This document shows, piece after piece, positions 12,986 through 52,019 of a DNA stretch of 64,000 nucleotides (positions are counted from its first letter, which is position 1; every line of letters begins with the position of its first letter). The stretch spans positions 1 to 64,000 of the forward strand of contig CACYQB010000020.1 of the NCBI GenBank assembly GCA_902776435.1. The letters run 5' to 3'. Under the pieces are notes generated by a model. It made no database searches. It had not been told where the DNA came from and saw only the letters and a program-made list of their open reading frames with translations. The stretch is from an uncultured Bacteroidales bacterium. Its GTDB lineage: Bacteria; Bacteroidota; Bacteroidia; Bacteroidales; Muribaculaceae. The translations under genes were made by a program, and so were the position numbers.

Positions 12986-14905
12986 ATGACTAAGAACTCC
13001 TACATACAACAACACTGCCCGCTGCTGGCCACCATCGACACGCCTGCCGACTTGAGGAAACTCGATATCGACAAGCTGCCACAGGTGTGTGACGAGCTGC
13101 GGCAGTTCATGATACACGAGTTGTCAAGCAACCCGGGACATTTCGCGTCGAGCATGGGCGCGGTTGAGATTGTAGTGGCATTGCACTACGTGTTCAACAC
13201 GCCCGATGACCGTCTGGTGTGGGACGTGGGGCATCAAGCCTATGCCCACAAGATCCTGACGGGCCGCCGTGACCAGTTTGACGATAACCGCAAGCTTGAC
13301 GGACTGAGCGGTTTTCCCAATCCCGCCGAGAGCGAGTATGACACCTTTACAGCCGGCCACGCGTCTAACAGCATCTCGGCCGCGCTGGGCATGGCGATTG
13401 CTGCCGAACTGCAGGACAACAAGGACCGCAAGGTGGTTGCCGTCATCGGAGACGCGAGCATCAGCGGCGGTTTGGCCTTTGAGGGCATCAACAATGCGAC
13501 GACCAACCCCAACAACCTGATTATCCTGCTCAACGACAACGACATGGCGATTGACGCCAATGTGGGCGCCTTAAGTTCCTACATGAGCGACCTGCACACG
13601 TCTCACCGTTATAATAAGGTGCGCTATAAGACCTATCAGTTCCTGCGGCGCCATAATGTCATCAATGACAACCGCAAGGGATTGATCATGCGATTCAGCA
13701 ATGCGATGAAGTCCCTGTTGTCCGGTCAGCAGAACATCTTCGAGGGCTTGAACATCCGCTACTTTGGCCTGTATGACGGCCATGACGTGAAACGGTTGGT
13801 CAAGATATTCCGCGAAATCAAGGATATGGAAGGCCCCAAGCTGGTACACGTGCGCACCGTCAAGGGCAAGGGATTTGCGGCTGCCGAGGCCGATCCCGCC
13901 ACCTGGCATGCACCAGGAAAATTTGACGAGGAAACCGGTGAGCGCGCCAAGGGCGGCAAAGGCGGCCCCATCAAGTACCAGGATGTGTTCGGCAAGACAT
14001 TGGTCGAACTGGCCGAGAAGAATGATAAGATTGTCGGCATTACTGCCGCCATGCCCAGCGGCACATCGATGTCGCTGATGCTGGAAGCAATGCCGCGACG
14101 CGCCTTTGACGTGGGCATCAGCGAGGGCCATGCAGTGACCTTTGCTGGAGGCCTTGCCAAGGACGGCATGCGCCCCTACTGCGCCATCTATAGCACCTTC
14201 CTGCAACGTGGCTATGACTCCATCATCCACGATGTGGCCATCCAGGGACTGCCGGTAACCTTCTGCATCGACCGCGGCGGCATTGTCGGCGAGGACGGCG
14301 TGACCCATCACGGACTGTTTGACCTGGCCTACCTGCGCTGCATCCCCGGCATGATTGTGGCATCTCCCATCAACGAGCACGACCTGCGCAACCTGATGTT
14401 CACCGCCCAGAGCGACAATTTTGGTCCCTTTGCCATCCGCTATCCGCGCGGCAAAGGCGTTATCGCCGAGTGGCATAACGAGATGCAGGCCTTGCCCATC
14501 GGCCGCGGCCGCCGCATGAACGAGGGCGAAGGTGTGGCTGTGCTCAGCATTGGTCACATCGGCAACGAGGTCATCGAGGTGGTCAACCGCCTGAAGGAAC
14601 AAGGCATCAACGTGGGCCACTATGACATGATCTTCCTGAAACCTATCGATGAGGAGATTCTGAAGGAAGCAACTACCCGTTACCACAGCATCATCACCAT
14701 CGAGGACGGCACCGTCATGGGTGGCCTGGGGACGGCTGTTGCCGAGTGGATTACCCAACATCACTGTGACACCCGCCTCAAGATGCTGGGTGTACAGGAC
14801 GAATTTGTACACCAGGGCACTGTGGCCCAACTCTATGAGCGCTGCGGCATGGACGCCAAGTCGCTTGAGGAAGCGATCAAGGAGGAGTTAGGAGTGAAGA
14901 GGTAG
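12986..14905 (+). CDS. dxs: 1-deoxy-D-xylulose-5-phosphate synthase
   Basis: 639 residues, full length. Condenses pyruvate and glyceraldehyde 3-phosphate to DXP, the first step of the MEP isoprenoid pathway and a source for thiamine and pyridoxal; ThDP- and Mg-dependent, cytoplasmic. Visible marks: DVGHQAYAHKILTGR, AGHASNSISAALG, the GDASISGGLAFEG thiamine/Mg motif and DRGGIVGEDGVTHHG. The last residues (EELGVKR) are encoded by a stretch with 7-base periodicity that continues past the stop (14884-14918). The gene follows the small membrane protein by 3 bases and precedes trkA by 47. Confidence 0.97.
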   Translation: MTKNSYIQQHCPLLATIDTPADLRKLDIDKLPQVCDELRQFMIHELSSNPGHFASSMGAVEIVVALHYVFNTPDDRLVWDVGHQAYAHKILTGRRDQFDDNRKLDGLSGFPNPAESEYDTFTAGHASNSISAALGMAIAAELQDNKDRKVVAVIGDASISGGLAFEGINNATTNPNNLIILLNDNDMAIDANVGALSSYMSDLHTSHRYNKVRYKTYQFLRRHNVINDNRKGLIMRFSNAMKSLLSGQQNIFEGLNIRYFGLYDGHDVKRLVKIFREIKDMEGPKLVHVRTVKGKGFAAAEADPATWHAPGKFDEETGERAKGGKGGPIKYQDVFGKTLVELAEKNDKIVGITAAMPSGTSMSLMLEAMPRRAFDVGISEGHAVTFAGGLAKDGMRPYCAIYSTFLQRGYDSIIHDVAIQGLPVTFCIDRGGIVGEDGVTHHGLFDLAYLRCIPGMIVASPINEHDLRNLMFTAQSDNFGPFAIRYPRGKGVIAEWHNEMQALPIGRGRRMNEGEGVAVLSIGHIGNEVIEVVNRLKEQGINVGHYDMIFLKPIDEEILKEATTRYHSIITIEDGTVMGGLGTAVAEWITQHHCDTRLKMLGVQDEFVHQGTVAQLYERCGMDAKSLEEAIKEELGVKR

Positions 14906-14918
14906 GAGTTAGGGGTAG
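14884..14918 (+). repeat. Degenerate heptamer array across the dxs stop
   Basis: Five 7-base units (ggagtta, ggagtga, agaggta, ggagtta, ggggtag) run through the dxs TAG at 14903-14905. Two units are imperfect. Confidence 0.5.
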
Positions 14919-14952
14919 AATTGTAACGTATTTATAATAACCAAAATAAACA

Positions 14953-16284
14953 ATGAGAATCGTTATTGCCGGCGCTGGAGAAGTCGGGACACATTTGGCA
15001 AAGATGCTCAGTAATGAGGAGCAGGACATCATCGTCATGGACGTTGAAAACAGGAAGCTCGAGCCGCTCGAGAATTACAACCTGCTCACTCATCAAGGCA
15101 GTGCCATCTCCTTCAGCGACCTCAACGCCATCAAAACCGGCTATTGTGACCTGTTTATCGCTGTCACAAAGAGTGAGGCCCGCAACATATTGTCGTGCTC
15201 CATGGCCAAGAAACTTGGAGCCAAGAAAACCGTTGCCCGCATCGACAATGATGAGTTCTTCAATGTGAACTGGCGCGAGCATTTCACAAAACTGGGCATT
15301 GACCATCTCATCTATCCCGAAATGCTGGCAGCCAAAGAAATCGCCAGCGCGCTAAAGCGCACGTGGGCGAGGAACTGGTTTGAGTTATTTGACGGCGAGC
15401 TCATTGTTGTGGGCGTGAAAATACGTTCTAATGCAAAAATCGTCAACCACATGCTCAAGGATTTGTCTGATATCAGCCAATTCCTGCATGTGTCGGCCAT
15501 CAAACGAAACCGCGAGATCATCATCCCTCGTGGCGACGACGTTATCCAGGAGAACGATATCGTCTATATCGCCACTACCCGCGATTATATTGAAGAGGTG
15601 CGTGAAGCCTGCGGAAAAATACAGAACCCAGTTGACAATGTGCTCATCGTGGGAGGAAACGACATTGCCGAGCAGCTCATCAAGAGATTGGGCAAGAGCG
15701 TAGATATCAAGATTATCGAGGAAAGTGAGGAGCGGTGCGAAGAGCTAGCCCAGCGTTATCCCAACTGCAAGTTGGTGCAAGGCAACTTCCGCGATTCAGA
15801 ACTCAGTGAGGAGGAGAGCGTTAGCTACTATGACGCTTTCATCTCCCTGGGTGACAACAGCGCCGTCAACATGATGGCGTGCATGATAGCCAAGACCAAC
15901 GGCGTTCCCAAGACCATCGCCCAGGTTGAGGACATCCAGTTCATCAATGAGGCCGAGGCACTTAACATTGGCACAATCGTCAACAAGAAGTTGCTGGCGT
16001 CGAGTCGCATCTTCCAAATCCTGATTGACGCCGATGAAGACAATGCCCGCTGCCTAGCCTTGGCTGATGCCGAGGTTGCCGAAGTCATCGTTGAGGCAGG
16101 TGACCGCGTAACCCGCGCTCCAGTAAAAGACCTAAAGCTGAGCCGCGATTTCACAATAGCCGGACTCGTGCGTGACGGCAAGGGAATGCTCGTGGGCGGC
16201 AACACGCGCATCCAGGCGGGCGACCACGTGGTAGTCTTCTGCCTGCAAGGCGCAATGCACAAACTTGACAAATATTTCTCGTGA
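14953..16284 (+). CDS. trkA: Trk system K+ uptake regulatory protein TrkA
   Basis: 443 residues, cytoplasmic, peripheral to the membrane. Two RCK units are visible: a nucleotide-binding Rossmann start IVIAGAGEVGTHLAKML at residue 3 and a second VLIVGGNDIAEQLIKRL near 233, each followed by a TrkA-C-type region. TrkA binds NAD(H)/ATP and gates the TrkH channel. The stop is followed after one base by the trkH ATG, so the two are translated as a coupled pair. Confidence 0.95.
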   Translation: MRIVIAGAGEVGTHLAKMLSNEEQDIIVMDVENRKLEPLENYNLLTHQGSAISFSDLNAIKTGYCDLFIAVTKSEARNILSCSMAKKLGAKKTVARIDNDEFFNVNWREHFTKLGIDHLIYPEMLAAKEIASALKRTWARNWFELFDGELIVVGVKIRSNAKIVNHMLKDLSDISQFLHVSAIKRNREIIIPRGDDVIQENDIVYIATTRDYIEEVREACGKIQNPVDNVLIVGGNDIAEQLIKRLGKSVDIKIIEESEERCEELAQRYPNCKLVQGNFRDSELSEEESVSYYDAFISLGDNSAVNMMACMIAKTNGVPKTIAQVEDIQFINEAEALNIGTIVNKKLLASSRIFQILIDADEDNARCLALADAEVAEVIVEAGDRVTRAPVKDLKLSRDFTIAGLVRDGKGMLVGGNTRIQAGDHVVVFCLQGAMHKLDKYFS

Positions 16285-16285
16285 G

Positions 16286-17767
16286 ATGCCCAAGCATATC
16301 AACCAAAATATCAACTTTCCCATCGTGCTGCGTATGCAGGGTTGGCTGCTCCTGATCGAGGCGGCCTTCATGCTGTTCCCGTTGGCCATCTCGTGGTTTT
16401 TTGATGAAAAGACCTCTCTCTACGCGTTCATCTATAGCACGGCTATCACCGCAGGTGCCGGTGCGGCAATGGCATTCGGCATCAAGCCCAAAAGCACCTC
16501 GATGCACAAGCGCGAAGGCCTGATGCTGACAGGCATCATCTGGGTGTTCTTCTCGCTGTTCGGCATGCTACCTTACCTGTTTAGTTACACGTTTAATAAT
16601 GTGACTGACGCCTTCTTTGAGACTATGGCGGGTTTCACCACCACGGGGTCGAGCGTGATACGCTATGTCGAGGAGATACCCCGCGGCGTGCTCTTCTGGC
16701 GGGCGATGACGCAGTGGATCGGCGGCATGGGAATCATCCTGTTCACCCTGGCTGTGATACCCATGTTGAACCAGAAAGGCGGTATCGCACTGTTTAACGC
16801 CGAGGTGACCGGCATCACCCATGAACGTTTACGCCCGCGTGTGAGCCAGACGGCTAAAGACCTGTGGCTCATCTACATCGGATTGACAGTGCTGCTCACC
16901 ATATTGCTGTTTATTGGTCCAATGGACTGGTTTGACGCGATATGCCACGCGATGACAACGACCTCGACTGGCGGCTATTCGACTAAAAACATCGGCCTTG
17001 ACTATTGGGAATCAAGCTACGTGTTTATCGTGGTCATCATCTTCATGTTCATTGGCGGTATCAGTTTCTCGCTGATTGCCGCGGTCGGGCATGGAAACTT
17101 CAAGCGCCTGAGGAACAACAACACCCTGCGCTGGTACTGCATGACCACACTCATCACCACAGTTGCCATCATGGCCTACATGGGATATAAGGGCTTCCTT
17201 GACACTCATGGTGACAGGTTTATTTACAGCGCGTTTGACACCCTGTCGGCTATTACCTCGACTGGTTTTTCCACATTTGACTACGAGAACAGCGGCGAGT
17301 TTGTCACCGTGGTACTGATGGTGATGATGTTCTTTGGCGGTATGGCGGGTTCCACCTCGGGTGGTGCAAAGATGGACCGTCTGATTGTCTTGCTGAAGAA
17401 TACCGCCAACGAGTTCTATCGCGTATTGCACACCAACTCGGTGCGTGCCGTCCACATCGATGGTAAGCCCGTGCCCAACCATGTGGTGAACAAGGTGAAT
17501 ACCTTCTTTGCCGTCTATATTCTCATTATTATGGTGGTGGCGCTGTACCTCACCTTCTTTGGCGTTCCAGTATTTGACGCGATGTACACGTCGATGTCGG
17601 CCATCAGTAATGTGGGTATCGGCTACGGCATGACAGGCCCCAACAGTTCATGGGTTGTGCTTCATCCCGCCGCCAAGTGGGTTCTTGCCTTTGAGATGAT
17701 GGTGGGCCGTCTGGAATTGTTCACCGTGCTGGTCATCTTCACCCGCTCCTTCTGGAAAAAAGACTGA
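16286..17767 (+). CDS. trkH: Trk-type K+ transporter membrane subunit TrkH
   Basis: 493 residues from ATG 16286, one base after trkA's stop; the open frame starts slightly earlier at a TTG inside trkA, which I discount. Multi-pass inner-membrane protein with repeated pore motifs of the Trk/Ktr/HKT type: TMAGFTTTGSSV, MTTTSTGGYST, ALSAITSTGFSTF and MSAISNVGIGYG, which supply the four selectivity-filter glycines. GGMAGSTSGGAKMDR and the MMVGRLELFTVLVIF end are also characteristic. Imports K+ with TrkA. Confidence 0.96.
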   Translation: MPKHINQNINFPIVLRMQGWLLLIEAAFMLFPLAISWFFDEKTSLYAFIYSTAITAGAGAAMAFGIKPKSTSMHKREGLMLTGIIWVFFSLFGMLPYLFSYTFNNVTDAFFETMAGFTTTGSSVIRYVEEIPRGVLFWRAMTQWIGGMGIILFTLAVIPMLNQKGGIALFNAEVTGITHERLRPRVSQTAKDLWLIYIGLTVLLTILLFIGPMDWFDAICHAMTTTSTGGYSTKNIGLDYWESSYVFIVVIIFMFIGGISFSLIAAVGHGNFKRLRNNNTLRWYCMTTLITTVAIMAYMGYKGFLDTHGDRFIYSAFDTLSAITSTGFSTFDYENSGEFVTVVLMVMMFFGGMAGSTSGGAKMDRLIVLLKNTANEFYRVLHTNSVRAVHIDGKPVPNHVVNKVNTFFAVYILIIMVVALYLTFFGVPVFDAMYTSMSAISNVGIGYGMTGPNSSWVVLHPAAKWVLAFEMMVGRLELFTVLVIFTRSFWKKD

Positions 17768-17837
17768 TTCCAGCAGACGCATTTCCCTACCGAAAGCGGT
17801 AGAAATATTTTTTCAAGAAAAAATATTGGGATTTGCG

Positions 17838-17867
17838 TTTGTAAATCAATTTTATTTTGTAATTTTA
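17838..17867 (+). promoter_or_regulatory. Candidate promoter for ftsK
   Basis: TTTG at 17838-17841 and TAATTTTA at 17860-17867 with an 18-base spacer approximate the Bacteroidetes pattern (last base of the -7 box is off). The ATG is 43 bases downstream. Confidence 0.45.
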
Positions 17868-17909
17868 CAGCCCCAAATTAACAAGGATAGCATATTTTCG
17901 ATAGCAACA

Positions 17910-20426
17910 ATGAGCAAAAGTCAAGCCAACCACAATAAAAACATGAGTGAGAATCAAGGCTATTACGCCCCCGATATCAGTGGAATACAGCAGTCGGAAG
18001 ACTACCGCAAACGTCAAGAAGTCGAGGAAGCCATCGATAAGGAGAAAGTCACCAAGTGGCAACGCTTTAAGGCGTTTTTCCAAAATGGCAGAATGAAATT
18101 TGCCATCGGTATTCTCATGCTGTTGACGGGTATCTACCTGCTGATCTCGTTCCTGTCGTTCTTCTTGTCGGCAGGCATGAGTGACCAGAACCGTATTGCC
18201 AACTACTCGATGATCGAGAATGCCCAAGTGCCTGACCAGATACGCAACGCAGGCGCTGCCGCTGGCGCGTCGTTAAGCGACTTCTTTATCTCGAGCGGTG
18301 TGGGTGTGGCCGCGTTTATCATCGTGGTGTGGTTTATCACCCTAGGCCTGCGCATGGTGCGCCAGGGCAAGAAAATCCATTTCTTCTCCTACACCCTCGT
18401 GTGCCTGTACAGCATCTTCACCTTCTCGATGGTTGTGGGTGCCGCTACCTATTTCATGAAGGCCATCACCTTCTTCCCCCTTGGCGGATACTTCGGATTC
18501 TATGCCAACAAGTGGCTGATAGGCCTTGTGGGCATCTATGGAATGGTGGCTGTCAATCTGGCCATCTTCATGTTTTGGGTGTTCCTCACTTACAAAACGT
18601 TTAATTTACTCTACAAGCAGCTGCAACAAGAGATTGAGAAAAAACGCAGCCGCAGTAAACAAGAGTCAGAGAGAGTTATCAGCGAACCGGGCCAGTCCAC
18701 TTTCTTGGGCGGAGAGCAGAAGATTTCTACCACCGATAGAGAAGACGAGCAGCCTGATTCTAATGAGGATAAAGTCCCTCTCGCCCGCCGCGTGAGGAAC
18801 CGCACCCGTAGCAAAGCTGCGAACAACGCCTCGAACGACGAGGGCGAGACAGCCAAACTCAAACCCATCACAGCCGGCAGGGACGTGAGCAACCCTCACG
18901 ATCCCACGGGTGAATATTGCCACTACCACTTCCCCACCCTCAACCTGCTGCAGGACATCCGCATGAATCCTAACAGCGTCGATAAGCAAGAGCAGGACGA
19001 GAACAAGGAGCGCATCCGTGATACCTTGAGCAAGTATGGCATTGAGATTAAGGAAATCATGGTGCACGTGGGTCCCACGGTGACACTGTTTGAGATTGTG
19101 CCTCAGGATGGTGTGCGCGTGAACAAGATTCGCGGCCTGGAGGACGATATCGCATTGAGCCTTGCCGCCCTGGGCATCCGCATCATCGCCCCCATGCCCG
19201 GCAAGGGCACCATCGGCATCGAGGTACCCAACCGCGACCCGCAGGTTGTCCCCATGCGTGAAGTGTTAGGCTCCAAAGCCTTCCAAGAGACACGCGCCAA
19301 GCTGCCCATGTGTCTGGGCTGCACGGTGAGCAACGAGGTGTTTATCGCCGACCTGACCAAGATGCCTCACCTGCTCGTGGCAGGTGCAACCGGTAAGGGT
19401 AAATCGGTGGGTCTGAACGCCATTATCACGTCGCTGCTCTACAAGAAGGGCCCGTCGGAACTGAAGTTTGTCCTTGTCGATCCCAAGCGTGTGGAGTTCA
19501 GCGTATATGCCGACCTGGAGAAGTACTTCTTTGCCAAGGCCCCAGGTGAGGAAAAAGCCATCATCACCGATACCGACCGCGTCATCAAGACGCTGAACTG
19601 CCTCGTCCAGGAGATGGAAAACCGCTATAGCGTGTTCGAGGAAGTGAGAGTGCGCAACGTGAGCGACTACAACGACCTGTGGCGCCGCGAACTGCGTGAG
19701 GTACGTGACGAACACGGCGAGAAGAAATACCAGTACATGCCCTACATCGTGGGCATCATCGACGAGTTCAGTGACATGATTATGACCGCCGGCAAGGAGG
19801 TTGAGACACCACTGGTGCGCATCGCCCAGAAAGCCCGTGCCGTGGGCATCCACATGATTATCGCCACTCAGCGCCCGTCGTCCAAGGTGATTACCGGCTT
19901 GATCAAGGGTAACTTCCCAGGACGTATCGCCTTTGCCGTAGCCCAGGGTATCGACAGCCAGATTATCATCGACCGCAGGGGTGCTCAGCAGCTCATTGGC
20001 CGTGGTGACATGCTGTTCCAGATCGACGGCGAGTTGACGCGCTTGCAGTGCCCGTTTGTCGATACGCCCGACATCGTTCGCATCTGTGACTACATCAAGG
20101 AGCAAGAGGACAATGACCGTGACATCAACCACGATAATCCCTACATGCTGCCCGAGTACGTCGGCAAGGACGAGGGAGGCGGCAGCGATGCCAATGTGGG
20201 CAACGTCAAGGACCGTGACCCGTTGTTTGAGGAGGCCGTGCGCTACGTCGTCATGAGCAACACCGCCAGCACCTCGTCGCTGCAACGCCGCTACGAGATC
20301 GGTTACAACCGCGCTGGCCGTCTGATGGATCAGATGGAGCATGCAGGCATCGTCGGCCCCGCTCAAGGCAGCAAACCACGCCAAGTGCTCGTCAGCCCAA
20401 TGGATATCGAACAACTGTTCTCTTAA
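17910..20426 (+). CDS. ftsK: DNA translocase FtsK/SpoIIIE
   Basis: 838 residues from ATG 17910 (the frame is open back to 17826, but no earlier ATG exists). About four N-terminal transmembrane segments (to about residue 235), a charged Ser/Glu-rich linker, then the motor. Walker A is GATGKGKS at about 492-499 (the Bacteroidetes form I recall has GQGKS) and Walker B is IIDEFSDMIM. The C-terminal gamma winged helix (SSLQRRYEIGYNRAGRLMDQ) recognises the polar KOPS sequence that directs pumping toward dif. Coordinates chromosome segregation with division at the septum. A terminator follows, then the LolA-like gene. Confidence 0.95.
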   Translation: MSKSQANHNKNMSENQGYYAPDISGIQQSEDYRKRQEVEEAIDKEKVTKWQRFKAFFQNGRMKFAIGILMLLTGIYLLISFLSFFLSAGMSDQNRIANYSMIENAQVPDQIRNAGAAAGASLSDFFISSGVGVAAFIIVVWFITLGLRMVRQGKKIHFFSYTLVCLYSIFTFSMVVGAATYFMKAITFFPLGGYFGFYANKWLIGLVGIYGMVAVNLAIFMFWVFLTYKTFNLLYKQLQQEIEKKRSRSKQESERVISEPGQSTFLGGEQKISTTDREDEQPDSNEDKVPLARRVRNRTRSKAANNASNDEGETAKLKPITAGRDVSNPHDPTGEYCHYHFPTLNLLQDIRMNPNSVDKQEQDENKERIRDTLSKYGIEIKEIMVHVGPTVTLFEIVPQDGVRVNKIRGLEDDIALSLAALGIRIIAPMPGKGTIGIEVPNRDPQVVPMREVLGSKAFQETRAKLPMCLGCTVSNEVFIADLTKMPHLLVAGATGKGKSVGLNAIITSLLYKKGPSELKFVLVDPKRVEFSVYADLEKYFFAKAPGEEKAIITDTDRVIKTLNCLVQEMENRYSVFEEVRVRNVSDYNDLWRRELREVRDEHGEKKYQYMPYIVGIIDEFSDMIMTAGKEVETPLVRIAQKARAVGIHMIIATQRPSSKVITGLIKGNFPGRIAFAVAQGIDSQIIIDRRGAQQLIGRGDMLFQIDGELTRLQCPFVDTPDIVRICDYIKEQEDNDRDINHDNPYMLPEYVGKDEGGGSDANVGNVKDRDPLFEEAVRYVVMSNTASTSSLQRRYEIGYNRAGRLMDQMEHAGIVGPAQGSKPRQVLVSPMDIEQLFS

Positions 20427-20442
20427 CTGACAATTCTCATAG

Positions 20443-20477
20443 GAGTGCCGTCCCCGATGCGGGTTGGCACTCTTTTT
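20443..20477 (+). terminator. Rho-independent terminator after ftsK
   Basis: GAGTGCC (20443-20449) pairs with GGCACTC (20466-20472) around a 16-base loop and is followed by TTTTT. Confidence 0.88.
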
Positions 20478-20519
20478 GCTATAATGTACTGGAGAGATTG
20501 GATTTAATTAATTGTGTCA

Positions 20520-21128
20520 ATGATGAAAAGAATATTGTTTTTAATGATAAGTTGCATTGCGGCCATGGTAGGTCTGGCACAGACGCCTGCCGCCATGCTT
20601 GACAAGTGTGTGGCAGCCATCAATGCGAGTGGTGGCGTGACCGCGAATTATAGTGTGACCACCAATCAGGGAACGAGTTCGGGCACGATAGCGATGCAGG
20701 GCAACAAGTTTCGCATCATCTCGCCCGAGGCCAAGTGCTGGTATGACGGCAAGACTCAATGGTCGTGGTCGCCCCTGACCAGCGAGGTCAACATCTCATC
20801 GCCCACCGCTAGCGAATTGCAACTGACCAATCCGCTAGCCGCCGCAGCCCATTTCAAAGCCAACTTCAACATGAAGAAGGCCAAAGCCAAGACGCCCAAC
20901 ACCTTTGTCATCAAACTGACACCCAAAAAGAAAGACAACATCAAGACTATATGGCTCTACTTTGACCAGACGACCTCGCTGCTGCGCACTGCGCGCTTCG
21001 AGATGAGCGACAAGACCGTTAACACCGTCAAAATCACGGGCTATAAACACAAGTCCCTACCAGCCTCGACCTTCACCTTTGACAAATCGCAGGTACCGGC
21101 TGGAACCGATGTAGTGGACTTGAGGTAA
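20520..21128 (+). CDS. LolA-like outer-membrane lipoprotein carrier
   Basis: About 202 residues with a signal peptide ending near VGLAQ. The body is the LolA/LolB-like half-barrel type: GTIAMQGNKFRIISPEAKCWYDGKTQW, then a strand-rich region ending in KSLPASTFTFDKSQVPAGTDVVDLR. In Bacteroidetes such a protein commonly follows ftsK, which supports the call. It would carry lipoproteins from inner to outer membrane through the periplasm. ATG 20520 is chosen over the GTG at 20514; ATG 20523 is equally possible. It is separated from ftsK by a terminator, so it needs its own promoter, which I cannot place. Confidence 0.75.
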   Translation: MMKRILFLMISCIAAMVGLAQTPAAMLDKCVAAINASGGVTANYSVTTNQGTSSGTIAMQGNKFRIISPEAKCWYDGKTQWSWSPLTSEVNISSPTASELQLTNPLAAAAHFKANFNMKKAKAKTPNTFVIKLTPKKKDNIKTIWLYFDQTTSLLRTARFEMSDKTVNTVKITGYKHKSLPASTFTFDKSQVPAGTDVVDLR

Positions 21129-21162
21129 AAAGGATGGAGGCTACGCCGTCACACCCGTAATA

Positions 21163-21409: not shown

Positions 21410-21426
21410 ACTTAACACAGAGAATC

Positions 21427-22332: not shown

Positions 22333-22333
22333 T

Positions 22334-22537: not shown

Positions 22538-22539
22538 GA

Positions 22540-36290: not shown

Positions 36291-36332
36291 AGATAAGAGA
36301 TGAGAGTTAATAGATAATAGATAATAGATAAA
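36291..36332. repeat. Heptamer array between mazG and topB
   Basis: Six 7-base units: agataag, agatgag, agttaat, agataat, agataat, agataaa. The array starts 5 bases upstream of the topB ATG (minus strand), so it covers its translation-initiation region. It belongs to the same heptamer family as the large array after uvrB. Confidence 0.7.
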
Positions 36333-40623: not shown

Positions 40624-40640
40624 AATAACATTATAACATG

Positions 40641-40744: not shown

Positions 40745-40762
40745 TGGTTAGTTTAAAGAGAC

Positions 40763-41743: not shown

Positions 41744-41758
41744 AAACCATTTTAAACC

Positions 41759-42856
41759 GTGACTGAAGAAATCAAAGTTACCTGTCTTCATGACAGACAC
41801 GTAGCGCTAGGCGCTCTCATGTCCCCCTTTGCAGGTTATGACATGCCCATCCAGTATGTAGATATCACCACCGAGCACAACGCTGTTCGCCAGAAGGTGG
41901 GTGTTTTTGACGTGTCCCACATGGGTGAGGTGGAAATCACCGGTCCCGACGCCGCCAAGTTCACCAACTACATCTTCACCAACGACATCAACACCATCAA
42001 GGCCGGCCAAATCCTGTACGGCATGATGCTGTATCCCGACGGAGGCACCGTTGACGACCTGCTGGTTTACCGTGTTGACGACAACGACTTCTTCCTCGTG
42101 ATCAACGCCGCCAATATCGACAAGGACGTGGCCTGGATCATGGAGCAAGCCAAGAACTTCGACGTGAAGGTTGACCACCAGAGCGAGCAGTACGGCCAGA
42201 TCGCCGTTCAAGGTCCCGAGGCCGAGAAGACCATGGGCGCAGTATTAGGCATCGACACCACCGACCTGACGTTCTATACTTTCAAGAAGATGGAATATGA
42301 CGGCAAGACCATCATCGTGAGCCGCACCGGTTACACTGGTGAGGACGGCTTTGAGGTATATGCCGACCCCGCTATCATCTGCAAGATGTGGGACCAGCTC
42401 ATGGAAGCCGGCGTACAGCCTTGTGGACTGGGTTGCCGCGACACTCTGCGCTTTGAGGCCGGTCTGCCCTTGTATGGCGACGAATTGACTCCCGAGATTT
42501 CACCCATCGCTGCCACCTTTGGCATGTTTGTGAAACTCGACAAGGAAGGTGGCTTCATCGGCCGTGATGCCTGCGCTCAGCAGAAGGCTGAAGGCACGCC
42601 CAAGAAGTTGGTGGGTCTGGAACTTGAAGGCAAGGCTATTCCCCGCCATGGCTATGAGGTGCTCGACGGCGAGAACGTAGTGGGTTACATCACCACCGGC
42701 TATCACAGCATCACGCTGGACAAGAGCGTAGCGTTTGCACTGGTTGACCGTGCCGTTGGTGCCCTGGGCAATACCCTCAACGTGCGCATCCGCAAGAAAG
42801 TGTTCCCCGCCGTAGTGGTGAAGAAACGCTTCTATACGCCTAATTACAAGAAGTAA
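41759..42856 (+). CDS. gcvT: Glycine cleavage system T protein (aminomethyltransferase)
   Basis: 365 residues. Transfers the methylene from the aminomethyl-lipoyl H protein to tetrahydrofolate, releasing NH3. Family blocks: LHDRHVALGALMSPFAGYDM, FDVSHMGEVEITGPDA, GQILYGMMLYPDGGTVDDLL, SRTGYTGEDGFEVY and GLGCRDTLRFEAGLPLYG. GTG 41759 is taken as start: a stop lies two codons upstream and the first ATG (41819) would delete conserved residues. The heptamer array at 42857-42898 begins directly after its stop. Confidence 0.95.
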   Translation: MTEEIKVTCLHDRHVALGALMSPFAGYDMPIQYVDITTEHNAVRQKVGVFDVSHMGEVEITGPDAAKFTNYIFTNDINTIKAGQILYGMMLYPDGGTVDDLLVYRVDDNDFFLVINAANIDKDVAWIMEQAKNFDVKVDHQSEQYGQIAVQGPEAEKTMGAVLGIDTTDLTFYTFKKMEYDGKTIIVSRTGYTGEDGFEVYADPAIICKMWDQLMEAGVQPCGLGCRDTLRFEAGLPLYGDELTPEISPIAATFGMFVKLDKEGGFIGRDACAQQKAEGTPKKLVGLELEGKAIPRHGYEVLDGENVVGYITTGYHSITLDKSVAFALVDRAVGALGNTLNVRIRKKVFPAVVVKKRFYTPNYKK

Positions 42857-42898
42857 GGTTTTAGGTTTTAGGTTTTAGGCTTTAGGTTTTAGGCTTTA
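42857..42898 (+). repeat. Heptamer array after gcvT
   Basis: Six 7-base units directly following the TAA: ggtttta three times, ggcttta, ggtttta, ggcttta. The unit contains TAG across its junction. Confidence 0.85.
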
Positions 42899-42966
42899 GG
42901 TGCCTAAACGAAGGTAGAATCAATTATAACAAACAGAATATTAACTAATTAATTTTTAAAAGCACA

Positions 42967-43347: not shown

Positions 43348-43351
43348 TTCA

Positions 43352-43379
43352 GAGTTAGGAGTTAGGAGTTAGGAGTTAT
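43352..43379 (+). repeat. Heptamer array after gcvH
   Basis: Four 7-base units (gagttag three times, then gagttat), four bases after the gcvH stop. Confidence 0.85.
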
Positions 43380-43412
43380 TATAAATAACCGACAACTGTA
43401 AACTAATAGATA

Positions 43413-44759
<1,347 letters not shown>

Positions 44760-44762
44760 ATT

Positions 44763-46256: not shown

Positions 46257-46270
46257 TCAGCAACTTTCCC

Positions 46271-46354
46271 GATTAGTGATTAGAGATTAGTGATTAGTGA
46301 GGATTACCTCCAGTCTATCAATAATTTCTCTAATCACTAATCTATAATCACTAA
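46271..46354. repeat. Heptamer array folded into a long inverted repeat
   Basis: 46271-46300 has four 7-base units (gattagt, gattaga, gattagt, gattagt). 46327-46354 carries a nearly exact reverse complement, about 25 of 28 positions by eye, around a 26-base loop. It lies 14 bases after the gcvPB stop. Confidence 0.75.
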
Positions 46355-46358
46355 CCCT

Positions 46359-46381
46359 CAATTGGGCTAAAAGCCCAATTG
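46359..46381. promoter_or_regulatory. Perfect 10-base hairpin upstream of lpd
   Basis: CAATTGGGCT-AAA-AGCCCAATTG is an exact inverted repeat with a 3-base loop, ending 16 bases before the lpd ATG. It may attenuate or set relative expression of lpd, or be a mobile palindrome. Confidence 0.55.
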
Positions 46382-46397
46382 AATAAAAAGAAAGAAT

Positions 46398-47735
46398 ATG
46401 TTTGACATTATTATTATAGGTGCTGGTCCTGGCGGTTATGAGACCGCTGCCGATGCTGCCGCAAAGGGACTGACCGTCGCCATCGTCGAGCGTGACCAGA
46501 TGGGCGGCACTTGTCTGAACCGCGGTTGCATCCCCACCAAGGCCCTGTGCCGCAATGCCGAGGTCATCAACCTCATGCGAGAAGCCGAGGTGTGGGGCGT
46601 GAAGACCGGCGAGATGGCCTTTGACTATGCACCCGTATTTGAGCGCAAAGAGGCTGTCGTCAAGCAGTTGCGCGAAGGTGTGGAGATGCTTATGGGCGCT
46701 CCTGGCATCACCGCCATCAAGGGCGAAGCCACCCTCAAGGACGCTAACACCGTTGTGGTCAATGGCGAGGAGTACAGTGCCAAGAACATCATCATCGCCA
46801 CGGGATCTGCTCCTCGCGGCCTGCCCATCGAGGGTGCCGACCTGGCAATGACCAGCGACGACATCCTGGCGATGGAAACGTTGCCCAAGAGCCTGTGCAT
46901 CGTGGGTGGTGGCGTCATCGGTATGGAGTTTGCCGCCGTGTTCAGCACGTTTGGCGTTGAGGTGACCGTCATCGAGTACTGCAAGGAAATCCTGCCTCCG
47001 TTTGACAAGGACGTGGCTAAACGCCTGAAAACCGTCCTGAGCAAACGCGGCATCAAGATTATCACCAGCGCTGCCGTTAATGGTATTACTCAAAGCGAGG
47101 AAGGCTTCACCGTATCCTATGAGCTCAAGGGCAAGCCCCAGAGTGTCACCTGCGAAAAGGTGCTCATGTCGGTTGGTCGCCAGCCCGTGCTGCCGCAGGG
47201 TCTTGACGCAGTGGGCGTTACCGTGGGCCGCCGTGGTATCGAGGTGGATGACAACATGATGACCAACGTCAAGGGCGTTTACGCCATCGGTGACGTGAAC
47301 GGTCGCATGATGCTTGCCCATGCCGCCAGCGCACAGGGACAACGCGCCCTGCATGCTATCCTGGGCAAGGCTGATGAGATCAAGCTCGACATCGTGCCCA
47401 GTGCCGTGTTCACTGTACCCGAGTTGGCCATGGTGGGCCTCACCGAGGAGCAGTGTGCCGAGAAAGGCCTTGATGTGACGGTAAAGAAGTCATTCTTCCG
47501 CAGCAACGGCAAGGCTGTAGCCATGAACGAGACCGACGGTCTGATCAAGATGATCGTCGATAACACGACACGCCAGATTGTGGGTTGCCACATCTGCGGT
47601 GCCCATGCTGCCGACCTCATCCAGGAAGTAGTGACCGCCATGAATGCCGGTGCTACCGTTGACCTGCTGGCTCGCAGCATCCACGGCCATCCCACCTTGA
47701 GTGAGGTGATGCTGACCGCCGCAAGGCAGTTCTAA
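46398..47735 (+). CDS. lpdA: Dihydrolipoyl dehydrogenase (L protein)
   Basis: 445 residues. FAD- and NAD-dependent enzyme that reoxidises dihydrolipoyl groups on GcvH. The FAD motif is IIIGAGPGGYETAADAA; the redox disulfide is Cys39/Cys44 in GGTCLNRGCIPTK; the NAD motif is IVGGGVIGMEFAAVF; and the His-Glu pair near the end is in SIHGHPTLSEVML. As the last gene of the cluster it completes T-H-P-L. Two hairpins separate it from gcvPB. Confidence 0.95.
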   Translation: MFDIIIIGAGPGGYETAADAAAKGLTVAIVERDQMGGTCLNRGCIPTKALCRNAEVINLMREAEVWGVKTGEMAFDYAPVFERKEAVVKQLREGVEMLMGAPGITAIKGEATLKDANTVVVNGEEYSAKNIIIATGSAPRGLPIEGADLAMTSDDILAMETLPKSLCIVGGGVIGMEFAAVFSTFGVEVTVIEYCKEILPPFDKDVAKRLKTVLSKRGIKIITSAAVNGITQSEEGFTVSYELKGKPQSVTCEKVLMSVGRQPVLPQGLDAVGVTVGRRGIEVDDNMMTNVKGVYAIGDVNGRMMLAHAASAQGQRALHAILGKADEIKLDIVPSAVFTVPELAMVGLTEEQCAEKGLDVTVKKSFFRSNGKAVAMNETDGLIKMIVDNTTRQIVGCHICGAHAADLIQEVVTAMNAGATVDLLARSIHGHPTLSEVMLTAARQF

Positions 47736-47744
47736 TCTTCTCAT

Positions 47745-47761
47745 GCAAGCCACAGGCTTGC
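47745..47761. repeat. Mini-hairpin, identical to the one at 3856-3872
   Basis: GCAAGCC-ACA-GGCTTGC, 9 bases after the lpd stop, with the same spacing to a stop codon as after the GH92 gene. Confidence 0.6.
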
Positions 47762-47778
47762 AATACGACGACATGACG

Positions 47779-47808
47779 CGCCACCCGCAACCCACAATGC
47801 GGGTGGCG
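47779..47808 (+). terminator. Hairpin after lpd
   Basis: CGCCACCCGCA pairs perfectly with TGCGGGTGGCG (11 bases, 8-base loop). No T-run follows, so it is a possible terminator of the gcv operon or a block to read-through. Confidence 0.55.
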
Positions 47809-47890
47809 TGCCATTGTGTCATCAAACAATAAATCATGCCATGGCGGCAAAATAGTGATGACCGAAAACGGAGAACTAAAAAGTTTTTTG

Positions 47891-47898
47891 TATCTTTG
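47891..47898 (+). promoter_or_regulatory. Candidate -7 box for uvrB
   Basis: TATCTTTG, 25 bases upstream of the uvrB ATG, with a T-rich -33 region. Confidence 0.55.
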
Positions 47899-47923
47899 TG
47901 GTTTGGAGTAAATGTATTAGACG

Positions 47924-49996
47924 ATGGAGTATAGACTGCATAGCGAATATGAGCCGACGGGTGATCAGCCGCAGGCGATAGCCGAGTTGGCCGACGGCGT
48001 GAATGAAGGGGTGCCTTATCAGACGCTGCTGGGCGTAACGGGTTCGGGCAAGACCTTTACCATGGCCAATGTCATCGCGCGCACTGGGCGTCCCACGCTG
48101 GTCTTGTCACACAACAAGACGCTTGCGGCGCAGCTGTATGCCGAGTTCAAGAGTTTCTTCCCCGAGAACGCTGTGCACTACTTCGTTTCCTATTATGACT
48201 ACTACCAGCCTGAGGCCTACATCCCCTCGACAGACAAATACATCGAGAAAGATCTGGCCATCAACGACGAGATTGAGAGGTTAAGGCTCTCGACGGTGAC
48301 GGCGCTGCTCAGTGGACGACGCGACATCGTGGTCGTGTCGAGCGTGTCGTGCCTGTATGGCATGGGCAATCCCGAGGACATCACTGCCAACGCCATTGAA
48401 CTGAAGGTGGGGCAACTGATTGGCCGTGACGAGTTGCTACACCGACTCGTTGATGCCTTGTATTCGCGCAGTGACACCGAATTGAGGATGGGCACTTTCC
48501 GCGTCAAGGGTGACACCGTTGACTTGTTCCTGAGCGACGAGGACATCATGTTGAGGATTATCTTCTGGGGCAACGAAATCGAACGCATCCAGATTCTCGA
48601 CAGCGAGACGCAGATGCCTACCGAGGACGTTGAGGGCTTTAAGATTTTCCCAGCCAACATCTTCGTGACCACGAAGGAACGCATGAAGGCCGCCATTGGC
48701 CAGATTGACCTGGACCGCGAAAACCAAGTAGCCGCCTTTGCCCGTGAGAACCGTTTTGCCGAAGCCAAGCGGCTGAACGAACGCGTGACCTATGATATGG
48801 AGATGATGCGCGAGGTGGGTTATTGCTCTGGTATTGAGAATTATAGCCGATATTTTGACGGTAGGAGGCCAGGCATGAGACCGTTCTGCCTATTAGACTA
48901 CTTCCCCGACGACTTCCTCACCATCATTGATGAGAGTCACGTGACAGTGCCACAAATCAGGGCCATGTACGGTGGCGACCAGTCGCGTAAGACCAATCTG
49001 GTGCATTACGGTTTCAGACTGGAGGCCGCACTGGACAATCGCCCGTTGCGGTTCGAGGAATTTGAGACCATGACGCACCAGACCATCTATGTGAGCGCCA
49101 CACCAGCTGACTATGAGTTGAATAAGAGTGAAGGCATCATCACAGAGCAGTTGATACGTCCTACAGGCTTGCTTGATCCACAAATCATCGTTCGTCCCTC
49201 CCAGGGACAGGTGGATGACCTGGTTGAGGAAATCCAACTGCGCATCGAGCGCGGCGAACGCACCCTGGTAACCACCTTGACCAAGCGCATGGCCGAGGAA
49301 CTGAGCGACTACCTCAAGCGGCTGGACATCCGTACGGCCTATATGCACAGCGATGTCGAGACGCTGGAGCGAATCGAGATTATCGACAACCTGCGTGCCG
49401 GCGCCATCGACGTGCTTGTGGGCGTGAACCTGTTGCGCGAGGGCCTTGACCTGCCTGAAGTATCGCTGGTTGCTATCCTTGATGCCGATAAGGAAGGATT
49501 CCTGCGCAGCCGCCGCTCATTGACGCAGACAGCAGGTCGTGCAGCACGCAACTTGAACGGTACCGTTATCATGTATGCTGACAACATCACCGACTCGATG
49601 AGGCAGACCATCGATGAGACCGAACGCCGCCGCACCCTGCAACTCAAGTATAACGAGGAACACGACATCACCCCCACGGCCATTATCAAGGCCCGCACGG
49701 CCATCATCGGCCAGGATACCGACATGCGGCATCCGACGACGCCCAGCCGTCACAACCAAGGCATGGTGCCTCCCACACCAGCGTCTAATCTGCGCTATAC
49801 CGAGGAATTTGACAACAGCGCCGGCGTAGCCGCCGATCCCGTTGTCGCCTACATGAGCGGCAAGGATATGCAGGCCGCCATCGACCGATTGAAGACTCAG
49901 ATGATCGAGGCCGCCAAGCGGATGGACTTCCTGGAAGCCGCGCAGTACCGCGATGAGATTCTGAAACTCGAGGAGATGATGAAGGGGAGGGATTAG
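47924..49996 (+). CDS. uvrB: Excinuclease ABC subunit B
   Basis: 690 residues. Damage-verifying helicase-like subunit of nucleotide excision repair. Walker A GVTGSGKTFTMANV, beta-hairpin YYDYYQPEAYIPSTD, IDESHVTVPQ (DEAD-like), GVNLLREGLDLPEVS and QTAGRAARNLNGTV (motif VI), and a C-terminal UVR motif MIEAAKRMDFLEAAQYRDEI that contacts UvrC. Full length. The stop codon TAG is the first part of the large heptamer array. Confidence 0.97.
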   Translation: MEYRLHSEYEPTGDQPQAIAELADGVNEGVPYQTLLGVTGSGKTFTMANVIARTGRPTLVLSHNKTLAAQLYAEFKSFFPENAVHYFVSYYDYYQPEAYIPSTDKYIEKDLAINDEIERLRLSTVTALLSGRRDIVVVSSVSCLYGMGNPEDITANAIELKVGQLIGRDELLHRLVDALYSRSDTELRMGTFRVKGDTVDLFLSDEDIMLRIIFWGNEIERIQILDSETQMPTEDVEGFKIFPANIFVTTKERMKAAIGQIDLDRENQVAAFARENRFAEAKRLNERVTYDMEMMREVGYCSGIENYSRYFDGRRPGMRPFCLLDYFPDDFLTIIDESHVTVPQIRAMYGGDQSRKTNLVHYGFRLEAALDNRPLRFEEFETMTHQTIYVSATPADYELNKSEGIITEQLIRPTGLLDPQIIVRPSQGQVDDLVEEIQLRIERGERTLVTTLTKRMAEELSDYLKRLDIRTAYMHSDVETLERIEIIDNLRAGAIDVLVGVNLLREGLDLPEVSLVAILDADKEGFLRSRRSLTQTAGRAARNLNGTVIMYADNITDSMRQTIDETERRRTLQLKYNEEHDITPTAIIKARTAIIGQDTDMRHPTTPSRHNQGMVPPTPASNLRYTEEFDNSAGVAADPVVAYMSGKDMQAAIDRLKTQMIEAAKRMDFLEAAQYRDEILKLEEMMKGRD

Positions 49997-50185
49997 ATAA
50001 GAGATAAGAGATAAGAGATAAGAGATAAAAGATAAGAGATAAAAGATAAGAGATAAGAGATAAGAGATAAAAGATAAGAGATAAGAGATAAGAGATAAAA
50101 GATAAGAGATAAAAGATAAGAGATAAAAGATAAGAGATAAAAGATAAGAGATAAAAGATAAGAGATAAAAGATAAGAGATAAAAA
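49995..50185. repeat. Large heptamer array, about 27 copies
   Basis: GATAAGA and GATAAAA units run uninterrupted from the uvrB stop to 50185, in near-alternation toward the right end. All length changes stay in a 7-base register. No spacers, so not a CRISPR. It ends about 20 bases before the usable start of the next gene. Confidence 0.95.
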
Positions 50186-50204
50186 CCACGTCAAAGGGCA
50201 ATGG

Positions 50205-51998
50205 TTGCCCACGACCAAGAAAGAGATGGAACACCTGGGCTGGGAACAGGCCGATGTAATCCTGTTCACTGGTGATGCCTACATCGACCATCCGTCGATG
50301 GGTACTGCTGTCATCGGGCGTGTGCTGGAGGCCCAGGGCTATAAAGTGGCCATCGTTCCGCAGCCCAACTGGCGTGATGACCTGCGCGATTTCAAGAAAT
50401 TGGGAAAGCCGAGGCTGTTCTTCGGCGTGTCGGCGGGAGCAATGGATTCGATGGTGAACCACTACACCGCTGCCCGCCGCAAGCGCAGTGATGACGCCTA
50501 TACACCAGACGGCCGAGCAGGTGCCCGTCCTGACTACCCCACGATTGTCTATAGCGACATCCTCAAACGACTGTTCCCCGACGTTCCCGTTGTGGCTGGC
50601 GGCATCGAGGTGTCGTTGCGGCGCCTTGCCCATTACGACTACTGGCAGGACAAACTACGGCCTTCCATCCTCATGGATTGCCAGGCGGACATGCTGGTCT
50701 ATGGCATGGGCGAGTTGCCCAATACCACTATCGCCAATGCCCTTGCCAGCGGCAAGCGTATTGAAGAACTGACCGACATTCCCCAAACCGTAGTGCGCCG
50801 CCCACTTAGCGAACTCCCAACCGAAAACACTGATACCGACGTGGTGCTGCACTCCTATGAGGAATGCCAAAAGTCGAAGAAATCACAGGCAGAGAATTTT
50901 AAGGTTATTGAAGTTGAGAGCAACCTGTGGCACGGGCACAACGTGTGGCAAGCCACGGGCGAGATTGCGGTGAAGGTGAACCGCACTAACCCGCCCATGA
51001 CCACCGAGCAGATAGATGCCTCGTTTGACCTGCCCTATACCCGTCTGCCCCACCCCCGTTACCAGGGCAAACGCATACCGGCTTATGAAATGATCAGGCA
51101 CTCGGTGTGCATGCATCGAGGATGCTTCGGCGGATGCGCTTTCTGCACCATCAGCGCCCATCAAGGCAAATTCATCGCTTCACGCAGTAAGGAATCTATC
51201 CTGCACGAAGTCAAGCAAGTGGTACAGATGGAAGACTTCAAGGGCTACATCAGTGACCTGGGAGGCCCGAGCGCCAACATGTACGGCATGCATGGCAAGG
51301 ATCTAGAGCGTTGCCAGCGTTGCCAACGTCCCTCGTGCCTGCATCCGCAACCCTGTGGCAACCTCAACACCGATCATAGCCAACTGCTAGACATCTACCA
51401 TGCCGTGGATGCCCTGCCCGAAGTGAAGAAATCGTTCATCGGCAGCGGTGTGCGCTATGACCTGTCGATGCACCGCACGGGAGATGCGCGTGTGGATAAG
51501 GTCAATGCCCAATATAACGAGGAACTGATCCGCTTCCATGTCTCAGGACGACTGAAGGTGGCGCCCGAGCACACCAGCGATGAGGTGCTGATGCTGATGC
51601 GCAAACCCTCATTTGCTCTGTTCCGTCGCTTCAAAGCCCTGTTTGATCGCGTGAACGTGAAGTATAACCTGCGCCAGCAACTTATCCCCTACTTCATCTC
51701 TTCACACCCCGGCTGCCATGAGGCAGACATGGCCGAACTGGCTGCCATCACCAAGGAGTTGGATTTTCGCTTGGAGCAGGTACAGGATTTCACGCCAACT
51801 CCCATGACCGTCTCGACCGAGACCTATTATACTGGGTTCCACCCCTACACGCTGAAACCGGTCTATTGTGCTAAAACACCGATGGAAAAACAGGCCCAGA
51901 GGCTGTTCTTCTTCTGGTATGACCGCAAGAACCGCGCCGCCATCACTGCCGCGTTGAAGCGCATCCATCGAGTCGACTTGCTCAAGAGGCTTTATTAG
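50205..51998 (+). CDS. YgiQ family radical SAM protein
   Basis: 597 residues from TTG 50205. Radical SAM enzyme of unknown reaction: the YgiQ N-terminal domain (GWEQADVILFTGDAYIDHPS) precedes the SAM core with the cluster CFGGCAFCTI (CxxxCxxC), ISDLGGPSANMYGM, and a C-terminal YgiQ-associated region. No in-frame ATG or GTG lies between the upstream stop and TTG 50205; the first ATG is at 50226. Codons for QW just upstream of TTG seem to continue the family N-terminus (I recall a W-LPT start in Bacteroides), which suggests that the repeat array removed the original start. Heptamer units follow the stop. Confidence 0.85.
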   Translation: MPTTKKEMEHLGWEQADVILFTGDAYIDHPSMGTAVIGRVLEAQGYKVAIVPQPNWRDDLRDFKKLGKPRLFFGVSAGAMDSMVNHYTAARRKRSDDAYTPDGRAGARPDYPTIVYSDILKRLFPDVPVVAGGIEVSLRRLAHYDYWQDKLRPSILMDCQADMLVYGMGELPNTTIANALASGKRIEELTDIPQTVVRRPLSELPTENTDTDVVLHSYEECQKSKKSQAENFKVIEVESNLWHGHNVWQATGEIAVKVNRTNPPMTTEQIDASFDLPYTRLPHPRYQGKRIPAYEMIRHSVCMHRGCFGGCAFCTISAHQGKFIASRSKESILHEVKQVVQMEDFKGYISDLGGPSANMYGMHGKDLERCQRCQRPSCLHPQPCGNLNTDHSQLLDIYHAVDALPEVKKSFIGSGVRYDLSMHRTGDARVDKVNAQYNEELIRFHVSGRLKVAPEHTSDEVLMLMRKPSFALFRRFKALFDRVNVKYNLRQQLIPYFISSHPGCHEADMAELAAITKELDFRLEQVQDFTPTPMTVSTETYYTGFHPYTLKPVYCAKTPMEKQAQRLFFFWYDRKNRAAITAALKRIHRVDLLKRLY

Positions 51999-52019
51999 GT
52001 TTTAGGCTTTAGGTGTTAG
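51992..52019 (+). repeat. Heptamer array across the YgiQ stop
   Basis: Four 7-base units, ttattag, gttttag, gctttag and gtgttag, the first of which contains the last codons and the TAG stop. Confidence 0.75.

What the first reader, a model, noticed from the sequence alone, without database searches (positions are those of the whole stretch)
14884..52019. Different 7-base tandem repeats sit at stop codons at seven sites
Arrays with strict 7-base periodicity occur at 14884-14918 (dxs), 36291-36332 (mazG/topB), 42857-42898 (gcvT), 43352-43379 (gcvH), 46271-46300 (gcvPB), 49995-50185 (uvrB) and 51992-52019 (YgiQ). The unit differs (ggtttta, gagttag, gattagt, gataaga and relatives), but the length is always seven and each begins within a few bases of, or across, a stop codon. 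On the + strand each unit contains TAG or TAA; because 7 is one more than a multiple of 3, three consecutive units put a stop in all three frames. They could act as read-through stoppers, as slippage-prone expression spacers, or be the debris of an unknown insertion mechanism. I know of no described function. The mazG/topB copy is a partial exception: its genes are on the minus strand, where the unit carries no stop.
Basis: partly seen in the sequence, partly recalled or inferred. Interest (0 to 1): 0.8.

Follow-up and report, generated by a model that had tools for sequence, protein, structure and literature searches.

The report
Seven-base repeat arrays at gene ends
A gut bacterium carries many short arrays of seven-base repeats that sit at the edges of its genes and point away from them; repeats of this kind are already known in other bacteria, but what they do and how they spread is not established.

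Summary
The arrays are real and 7-periodic. In an 864-kb sample of this Bacteroidales genome, periods 7, 14 and 21 give 70 intergenic arrays; all other periods from 4 to 24 give 25 together; intergenic shuffles give none at period 7.

"At stop codons" is only partly right. Arrays touch both kinds of gene edge (3' ends about 2.5 times more than 5' ends), and the AG strand runs away from the nearest gene in 45 of 47 arrays within 40 bp. The mazG/topB array lies at the topB start.

This placement is in print for heptamers of Xanthomonas and Nostoc (PMC4692102). New here: 24 related units for 65 arrays, units shared between sites without intermediates (AGTTTTT/AGTCCTT), membership in dispersed palindromic elements, and a concentration in part of the genus.

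Dedicated read-through stoppers are not shown: arrays far from gene ends carry stops as often (19 of 21 against 17 of 18). Most likely these are dispersed repeats, homogenised in place and kept where their AG strand does least harm. Why they also point outward at start codons is unexplained.

The parts
14883..14918 (+). degenerate heptad array (GGAGTTA type) running across the dxs stop codon (14903-14905)
36291..36332 (+). heptad array (AGATAAT/GAGATAA type), 5 nt from the topB start (gene on the minus strand, so antisense), 31 nt from the mazG stop
42856..42901 (+). heptad array (GGTTTTA/GGCTTTA) starting at the gcvT stop
43352..43379 (+). heptad array (GGAGTTA), 4 nt after the gcvH stop
46271..46300 (+). 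heptad array (GATTAGT), 14 nt after the gcvPB stop; left arm of an inverted pair
46327..46354 (-). inverted heptad array (CTAATCA on +) facing the gcvPB array; right arm of the pair, upstream of lpd
49995..50185 (+). longest array of the sample (about 27 units, GAGATAA/AAGATAA) starting at the uvrB stop
51992..52020 (+). short degenerate heptad array (GGTTTTA/GGCTTTA/GGTGTTA) across the ygiQ stop

Best explanation
These are dispersed intergenic heptanucleotide repeats, a known kind of bacterial simple-sequence repeat, in an uncultured gut Bacteroidales genus. A family of related AG...T heptamers was copied to many places, mainly in one part of the genus, partly as arms of small dispersed palindromic elements (shown: shared units, variants without intermediates, repeated cores). 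Each array then grows, shrinks and is homogenised in place by slippage or unequal exchange (inferred from unit turnover at orthologous sites). Where an array stays depends on its strand: the AG/G strand, which usually carries a stop in all frames, is found in sense at gene ends, where it can supply the stop codon itself, and not inside genes; the C-rich strand is the sense strand in the arrays found inside genes of relatives (shown as correlation; tolerance as the cause is inferred). No dedicated function such as read-through stopping is needed. What copies the arrays, and why arrays beside start codons also point outward, is unexplained.
For: Period 7/14/21: 55+12+3 intergenic arrays against 25 for all other periods 4-24; none at period 7 in three intergenic shuffles; one coding array. 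24 majority units for 65 own arrays, 62.8 for random heptamers beside stops, minimum 58 of 500 draws. AGTTTTT (25 units, 14 sites) and AGTCCTT (28 units, 12 sites) occur together at 10 sites with 0 single-step intermediates among 455 units. Type II element (arm-core-inverted arm) at 12 near-full-length places of G000; type I (TGCTCGC pair, heptads, GGCATCCGCATTCC) with 48 matches; both are lower bounds, 40 candidates were scored in each. Type II in 12 of 41 genomes, all of the own genus. 19 arrays in 132 kb of four congeners against 2 in 242 kb of eight others. Units at orthologous sites differ by 1.74 bases, at different sites by 2.50, random heptamers by 3.66. In-gene arrays of other Bacteroidales more than 30 nt from the stop: sense C>G 26 of 27, G>C 0, one tie. 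TAG is the stop of 11 of 26 genes touched by an array, 83 of 648 of all genes.
Against: Stops cannot be the whole filter: for 11 of the 27 in-gene arrays the other strand has no stop in all three frames either, yet the sense strand is still C-rich. Arrays after a stop that do not overlap it are also mostly in sense, and all 13 own arrays within 15 bp of a start are antisense. Array-free sequence after stops is C>G, opposite to the arrays. No mobilising enzyme identified. The congener stretches were partly chosen round gcvH, where arrays were known, and G019, a close congener, has none in 20 kb. p-values treat copies as independent; gene calls are from my own script; only 25% of the genome was sampled.
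Confidence: 0.53

Rival explanations
1. Read-through insurance: the arrays are kept because three successive units put a stop in every frame behind the gene.
For: 26 of 26 own 3'-edge arrays within 15 bp have stops in all frames in sense against 18.5 expected from shuffled units; more arrays at 3' than 5' edges; TAG supplied by arrays.
Against: 19 of 21 arrays far from edges have the same property; a third of edge arrays lie at start codons in antisense (13 of 41 own arrays within 15 bp); at orthologous ends arrays are often absent: dxs 3, ygiQ 2, mazG 5 of 16.
Confidence: 0.1
2. Every array is a whole or half arm of an inverted-repeat element inserted between genes, which by itself fixes the outward strand on both sides.
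For: Pairs in one gap: 13 convergent, 0 divergent, 1 tandem; type II and some type I copies are true palindromes; arrays match the rest of their own gap better than permuted gaps (23 of 2000 permutations reach the sum).
Against: Only 13 of 68 arrays have a strong own partner (8.7% of other pairings also reach the score); gaps with arrays are not richer in inverted repeats (8 of 39 against 50 of 275); several pairs carry different units.
Confidence: 0.17
3. Independent slippage at each site: polymerase favours 7-base duplications and local seeds expand without any copying between sites.
For: Heptamer excess is reported widely and polymerase footprint has been proposed (Mrazek 2007, seen only as cited in PMC4679880 and PMC4692102); in-place unit drift.
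Against: Shared units and paired variants without intermediates; arrays rare in eight congeners of the same genus.
Confidence: 0.08
4. The arrays are binding sites for a protein or RNA that acts on mRNA ends or translation.
For: Regular placement at both gene edges; a translational role was suggested for TAACTGA repeats (PMC4679880).
Against: Unit changes at one gene end between close species; no Rfam family at the arrays, only a tRNA in the window at gathering threshold.
Confidence: 0.07

Closest known systems
Heptameric repeats GGGAATC (Xanthomonas) and GGGGA(C/T)T (Nostoc), Rehm et al. 2015, PMC4692102 (abstract, sections 3, 13, 15, 16 and passages read)
   Same: Period 7, mostly intergenic, dispersed; mostly within 50 bp after stops on the sense strand (overlap included) or within 50 bp before starts on the antisense strand; length and sequence vary between close species; no function identified.
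   Different: There one G-rich unit type per genome, able to form quadruplexes in vitro; here 24 majority units for 65 arrays, the common ones without GGG, and some arrays inside dispersed palindromic elements.
TAACTGA direct repeats of Beggiatoaceae, cyanobacteria and five Bacteroidetes, MacGregor 2015, PMC4679880 (abstract and sections 3, 9, 10, 24 read)
   Same: Intergenic heptamers with stops on one strand and an open other strand; Bacteroidetes among the carriers; TAACTGA before starts corresponds to the antisense AGT strand seen here (my inference).
   Different: TAACTGA is not among the 32 majority units here; most Guaymas arrays lie upstream of starts, here more lie at 3' ends.
Heptanucleotide long simple sequence repeats (Mrazek et al. 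2007, seen only as cited in the two papers above; survey of 7,006 prokaryote genomes, PMC6344855, passages read)
   Same: Heptamers as the most abundant intergenic tandem repeat in a wide range of prokaryotes, function unclear.
   Different: From what I read, no unit families, orientation or orthologous-site histories for this group.
Cyanobacterial STRR sequences of Calothrix (recalled; mentioned without units in the section of PMC4692102 that I read)
   Same: Several heptanucleotide repeats in one genome; one unit, as I recall it, is a rotation of AGTTGTC seen in congener locus L152.
   Different: Not compared here; no paper with the units was found.
MITEs and REPINs (PMC3116915, search listing only)
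   Same: Type II elements are short dispersed inverted repeats confined to a clade.
   Different: Their arms are heptad arrays; no linked transposase found.

Membership tests
Intergenic heptameric simple-sequence repeats | Period 7 in clear excess over other unit lengths | tested here: met
   55 at period 7 (+12 at 14, +3 at 21) against 25 for all other periods 4-24
Intergenic heptameric simple-sequence repeats | Concentrated outside coding sequence at many unlinked places | tested here: met
   65 of 70 candidates kept in 864 kb of own sequence; one coding array at period 7. In other Bacteroidales 37 of 84 period-7 arrays were scored as coding
Placement class of Rehm et al. | Sense after stops, antisense before starts, close to the ORF | tested here: met
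   outward 45 of 47 own and 18 of 20 congener arrays within 40 bp; weaker in other Bacteroidales, 27 of 37
Quadruplex-forming heptamer repeats | Units with G tracts of three or more | tested here: not met
   none of the 13 majority units found at three or more sites has GGG; one congener unit (AGGGTTT, L157) has. Folding itself not tested
TAACTGA repeats | Unit TAACTGA | tested here: not met
   not among the 32 majority units of 86 arrays
Phase-variable contingency repeats | Length polymorphism between strains that switches a gene | not testable with these tools
   no strain series held; the window genes concerned are housekeeping genes
MITE/REPIN-type elements (type II only) | Short non-coding element with inverted ends in many copies | tested here: met
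   12 near-full-length places in G000
MITE/REPIN-type elements (type II only) | Transposase flanked by, or tracking, the element | tested here: not met
   none of the three Y1_Tnp loci carries a period-7 array or a clear element copy; Y1_Tnp in 37 of 41 genomes against the element in 12 of 41. Other transposase families not tested
MITE/REPIN-type elements (type II only) | Target-site duplications and empty sites | not tested
   not examined

The most novel reading that the evidence does not exclude
The arrays are made by a templated, end-extending activity: when DNA breaks between genes, both 3' ends are extended with AG-strand heptads from a small set of templates and then joined, telomere-like. 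This would give at one stroke the outward strand at both gene edges, convergent pairs only, different units in the two arms of one gap, filler cores between arms, and paired unit variants without intermediates. No enzyme candidate is known: the genome shows no RVT_1 match.
Probability: 0.05. Interest if true: 0.9.

Novelty: new variant of a known kind. Interest (0 to 1): 0.45.

Why it matters
Heptamers are reported as the most abundant intergenic tandem repeat in a wide range of prokaryotes, with no clear function (PMC6344855, PMC4692102). This genus offers many unit types obeying one placement rule, mostly without G tracts (which speaks against quadruplexes as the common cause), close species with and without an array at the same gene end, and dispersed elements that carry the arrays. 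That makes it a usable system for separating copying, slippage and selection.

Tried and rejected
Hairpin function as the general rule: own-gap complementarity exceeds permuted gaps in sum (23 of 2000 permutations reach it) but mean rank is 0.53 and only 13 of 68 arrays have a strong partner; gaps with arrays are not richer in inverted repeats. Holds for a minority.

Background strand skew as the cause of orientation: not supported at 3' ends, array-free sequence after stops is C>G; before starts the background is slightly C>G, the same direction as the arrays but far weaker.

Reverse-transcriptase source: no RVT_1 (PF00078) match in G000 (95% complete), while 3 of 14 control genomes ring. Other polymerase families were not searched. 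Y1 transposase source: three genes in G000, no period-7 array or clear element copy beside them; family in 37 of 41 genomes.

Known RNA families in the window: one tRNA at gathering threshold. A search for heptamer, tandem repeats, Bacteroidales and intergenic gave no paper (this full-text library only). Searches gave mostly unrelated papers.

Rows dropped: 5 of 70 own candidates below 0.55 lag-7 identity; the dxs and ygiQ arrays are below the genome-wide threshold and are not among the 65. One search used 68 of 86 arrays (outward, both flanks, at least 25 nt beyond). One search used the 30 of 48 type I matches that had a locus; some are neighbouring copies. One search lists 36 of 37 coding arrays (one had no single gene). 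The output was cut, so part of its dxs and mazG rows was not read; counts are. In searches only part of the candidates was scored, so copy numbers are lower bounds.

Full report
Source. The window is contig 20 of an unnamed 3.45-Mb genome in 43 contigs. The closest named relative by GcvPB among the loci returned is an uncultured Prevotellaceae bacterium RUG575 (93% identity); its contig length, 17,953, equals that of congener G007's contig 21. The genome is a draft, so the length of the longest arrays, such as the 190-base uvrB array, may be an assembly estimate (inference).

Observation. All seven arrays are present, with lag 7 the best of lags 3-12 in each. Two, dxs and ygiQ, are short and degenerate. 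The mazG/topB array is at the topB start, not at a stop. An inverted array at 46327-46354 faces the gcvPB array.

Genome scale. I called genes with a codon-score script and looked for self-match at lags 4-24 in 864 kb of own sequence, 25% of the genome. Intergenic arrays by period: 7: 55, 14: 12, 21: 3, all others together 25. Three intergenic dinucleotide shuffles gave none at period 7, one at 14 and one at 21. Coding period 7: one. Of the 70 candidates, 65 were kept; by proportion the genome would hold about 260 (inference). In 374 kb of congener sequence 20 intergenic period-7 arrays were found against at most 2 for any other period. In 80 loci of wider Bacteroidales period 7 is the most frequent intergenic period (47; next is period 9 with 19). 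In seven genomes of other families of the order, small samples gave 2 period-7 arrays in 300 kb.

Placement. Of 61 own arrays with both flanks, 21 touch a gene edge (2.0 expected for random placement in the same gaps) and 41 lie within 15 bp (24.4 expected). Orientation was assigned from 3-mer content alone, without using position. The AG strand points away from the nearest gene in 45 of 47 own arrays within 40 bp, in 58 of 65 overall, and in 18 of 20 congener arrays within 40 bp. In other Bacteroidales (L008-L081) it is 27 of 37. 3' edges are used more than 5' edges (32 of 405 against 14 of 427 within 15 bp), but both are used. Array-free sequence after stops is C>G, the opposite skew. Pairs of arrays in one gap, own genome and congeners: 13 convergent, none divergent, one tandem, several with different units.

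Stops. Among 77 outward arrays of own genome and congeners, stops in all frames on the outward strand occur in 19 of 19 that overlap a stop or ORF end, 17 of 18 that lie 0-15 nt after one, 19 of 21 farther away and 13 of 19 beside starts. So stop content is largely a feature of the family, somewhat lower at starts. Against shuffled units the own 3'-edge arrays do have more stops than expected (26 of 26, 18.5 expected). TAG is over-used where an array touches the 3' end (11 of 26 genes against 83 of 648 overall, Fisher p 1e-4), so the array often supplies the stop. In other Bacteroidales some arrays lie inside genes: of 27 more than 30 nt from the stop, 26 have sense C>G, none G>C, one ties; of 8 that overlap the gene end, 7 have sense G>C with stops. 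That looks like a tolerance rule at coding boundaries. But in 11 of those 27 the opposite strand has no stop in all frames either, so stops are not the whole reason.

Units and dispersal. The 65 own arrays use 24 majority units; random heptamers beside stops would give 62.8. Among 455 units of 86 arrays, AGTTTTT and AGTCCTT occur at 14 and 12 sites, together at 10, and neither single-step intermediate occurs (two strings of that form are column consensuses of mixed arrays). Two composite dispersed elements carry heptads. Type II is an inverted pair of AGTTTTA/AGTTGTA arms round a conserved core, at 12 near-full-length places. Type I is a TGCTCGC pair, about four heptads and GGCATCCGCATTCC, with 48 matches, some complete palindromes. 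Both counts are lower bounds. Type I copies are outward in 24 of 30 examined: 12 of 12 within 40 bp of a gene and 12 of 18 farther away, so the rule weakens away from edges. Type II occurs in 12 of 41 genomes, all of this genus and none of 16 from other genera. Arrays number 19 in 132 kb of G006, G007, G009 and G024 against 2 in 242 kb of eight other congeners; several stretches were chosen round gcvH, where arrays were known, and G019, a close congener, has none in 20 kb.

Orthologous sites. Directly after the gcvT stop the window has AGGTTTT, RUG575 AGTTTCT/AGTCCCT, G024 GGGTCTA/GAGCTTA, G006 AGGCTTT/AGGTTTT, and G019 nothing. At the uvrB end 9 of 16 close congeners (own included) pass the array test with seven majority units; dxs 3, ygiQ 2, mazG 5 of 16; gcvT 5 and gcvH 5 of 8. 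Units at orthologous sites differ by 1.74 bases on average (70 pairs), at different sites by 2.50 (365 pairs), random heptamers by 3.66. So arrays are inherited, change unit in place, and come and go.

Prior work. PMC4692102 reports the same placement rule for GGGAATC and GGGGA(C/T)T repeats, with no function found. PMC4679880 reports TAACTGA repeats, Bacteroidetes included, and points out the stop-bearing and open strands. [quoted passage not shown] The kind is therefore known. I found no paper on it in Bacteroidales in the one search that named them. The related unit family, the dispersed elements and the orthologous-site history are what I add.

Mechanism. Best supported: copying of a limited set of heptad arrays in part of the genus, homogenisation in place, and a filter on which strand is tolerated where. 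Shown: periodicity, placement, orientation, shared variants, dispersed elements, restriction of type II to the genus, strand rule in genes. Inferred: the copying process, tolerance as the cause of the strand rule, neutrality. Unexplained: the outward rule at start codons and at non-overlapping 3' positions. No RVT_1 match was found, and Y1 transposases do not track the elements. The telomere-like end-extension reading would explain the geometry but has no candidate enzyme; I give it 5%.

Noticed in passing
L033:9192-9223, L050:9264-9292, L051:9261-9293, L064:946-975, L070:9261-9295: In several Prevotella-type loci a CTCTCAA-type heptad array lies inside the gene just before gcvPB (by gene order probably gcvPA) at 0.41-0.44 of its length, in an open frame.
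   Followed up: partly
L131:12262-12332 and L342-L371 (type I): Composite intergenic repeat: TGCTCGC pair, heptads, GGCATCCGCATTCC, sometimes a full palindrome; 48 matches in the genome.
   Followed up: partly
L150:15960-16085 and L312-L322 (type II): Genus-specific dispersed palindrome that in several copies fills the gap between two genes; core with TACCTTTG and GGCGATAG stretches.
   Followed up: partly
L156 and L158, gcvPB-lpd gap: At the site of the window's inverted heptad pair, congeners have other inverted repeats with internally repeated arms (CGCTAAGTC type) followed by a short T run, terminator-like.
   Followed up: no
window 46358-46382: A second palindrome (TCAATTGGGC TAAAA GCCCAATTGA) follows the inverted heptad array upstream of lpd.
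   Followed up: no
L188:1-66: An 8-base array (TAACAATT) at a contig end of G034, a genome of another family of the order.
   Followed up: no
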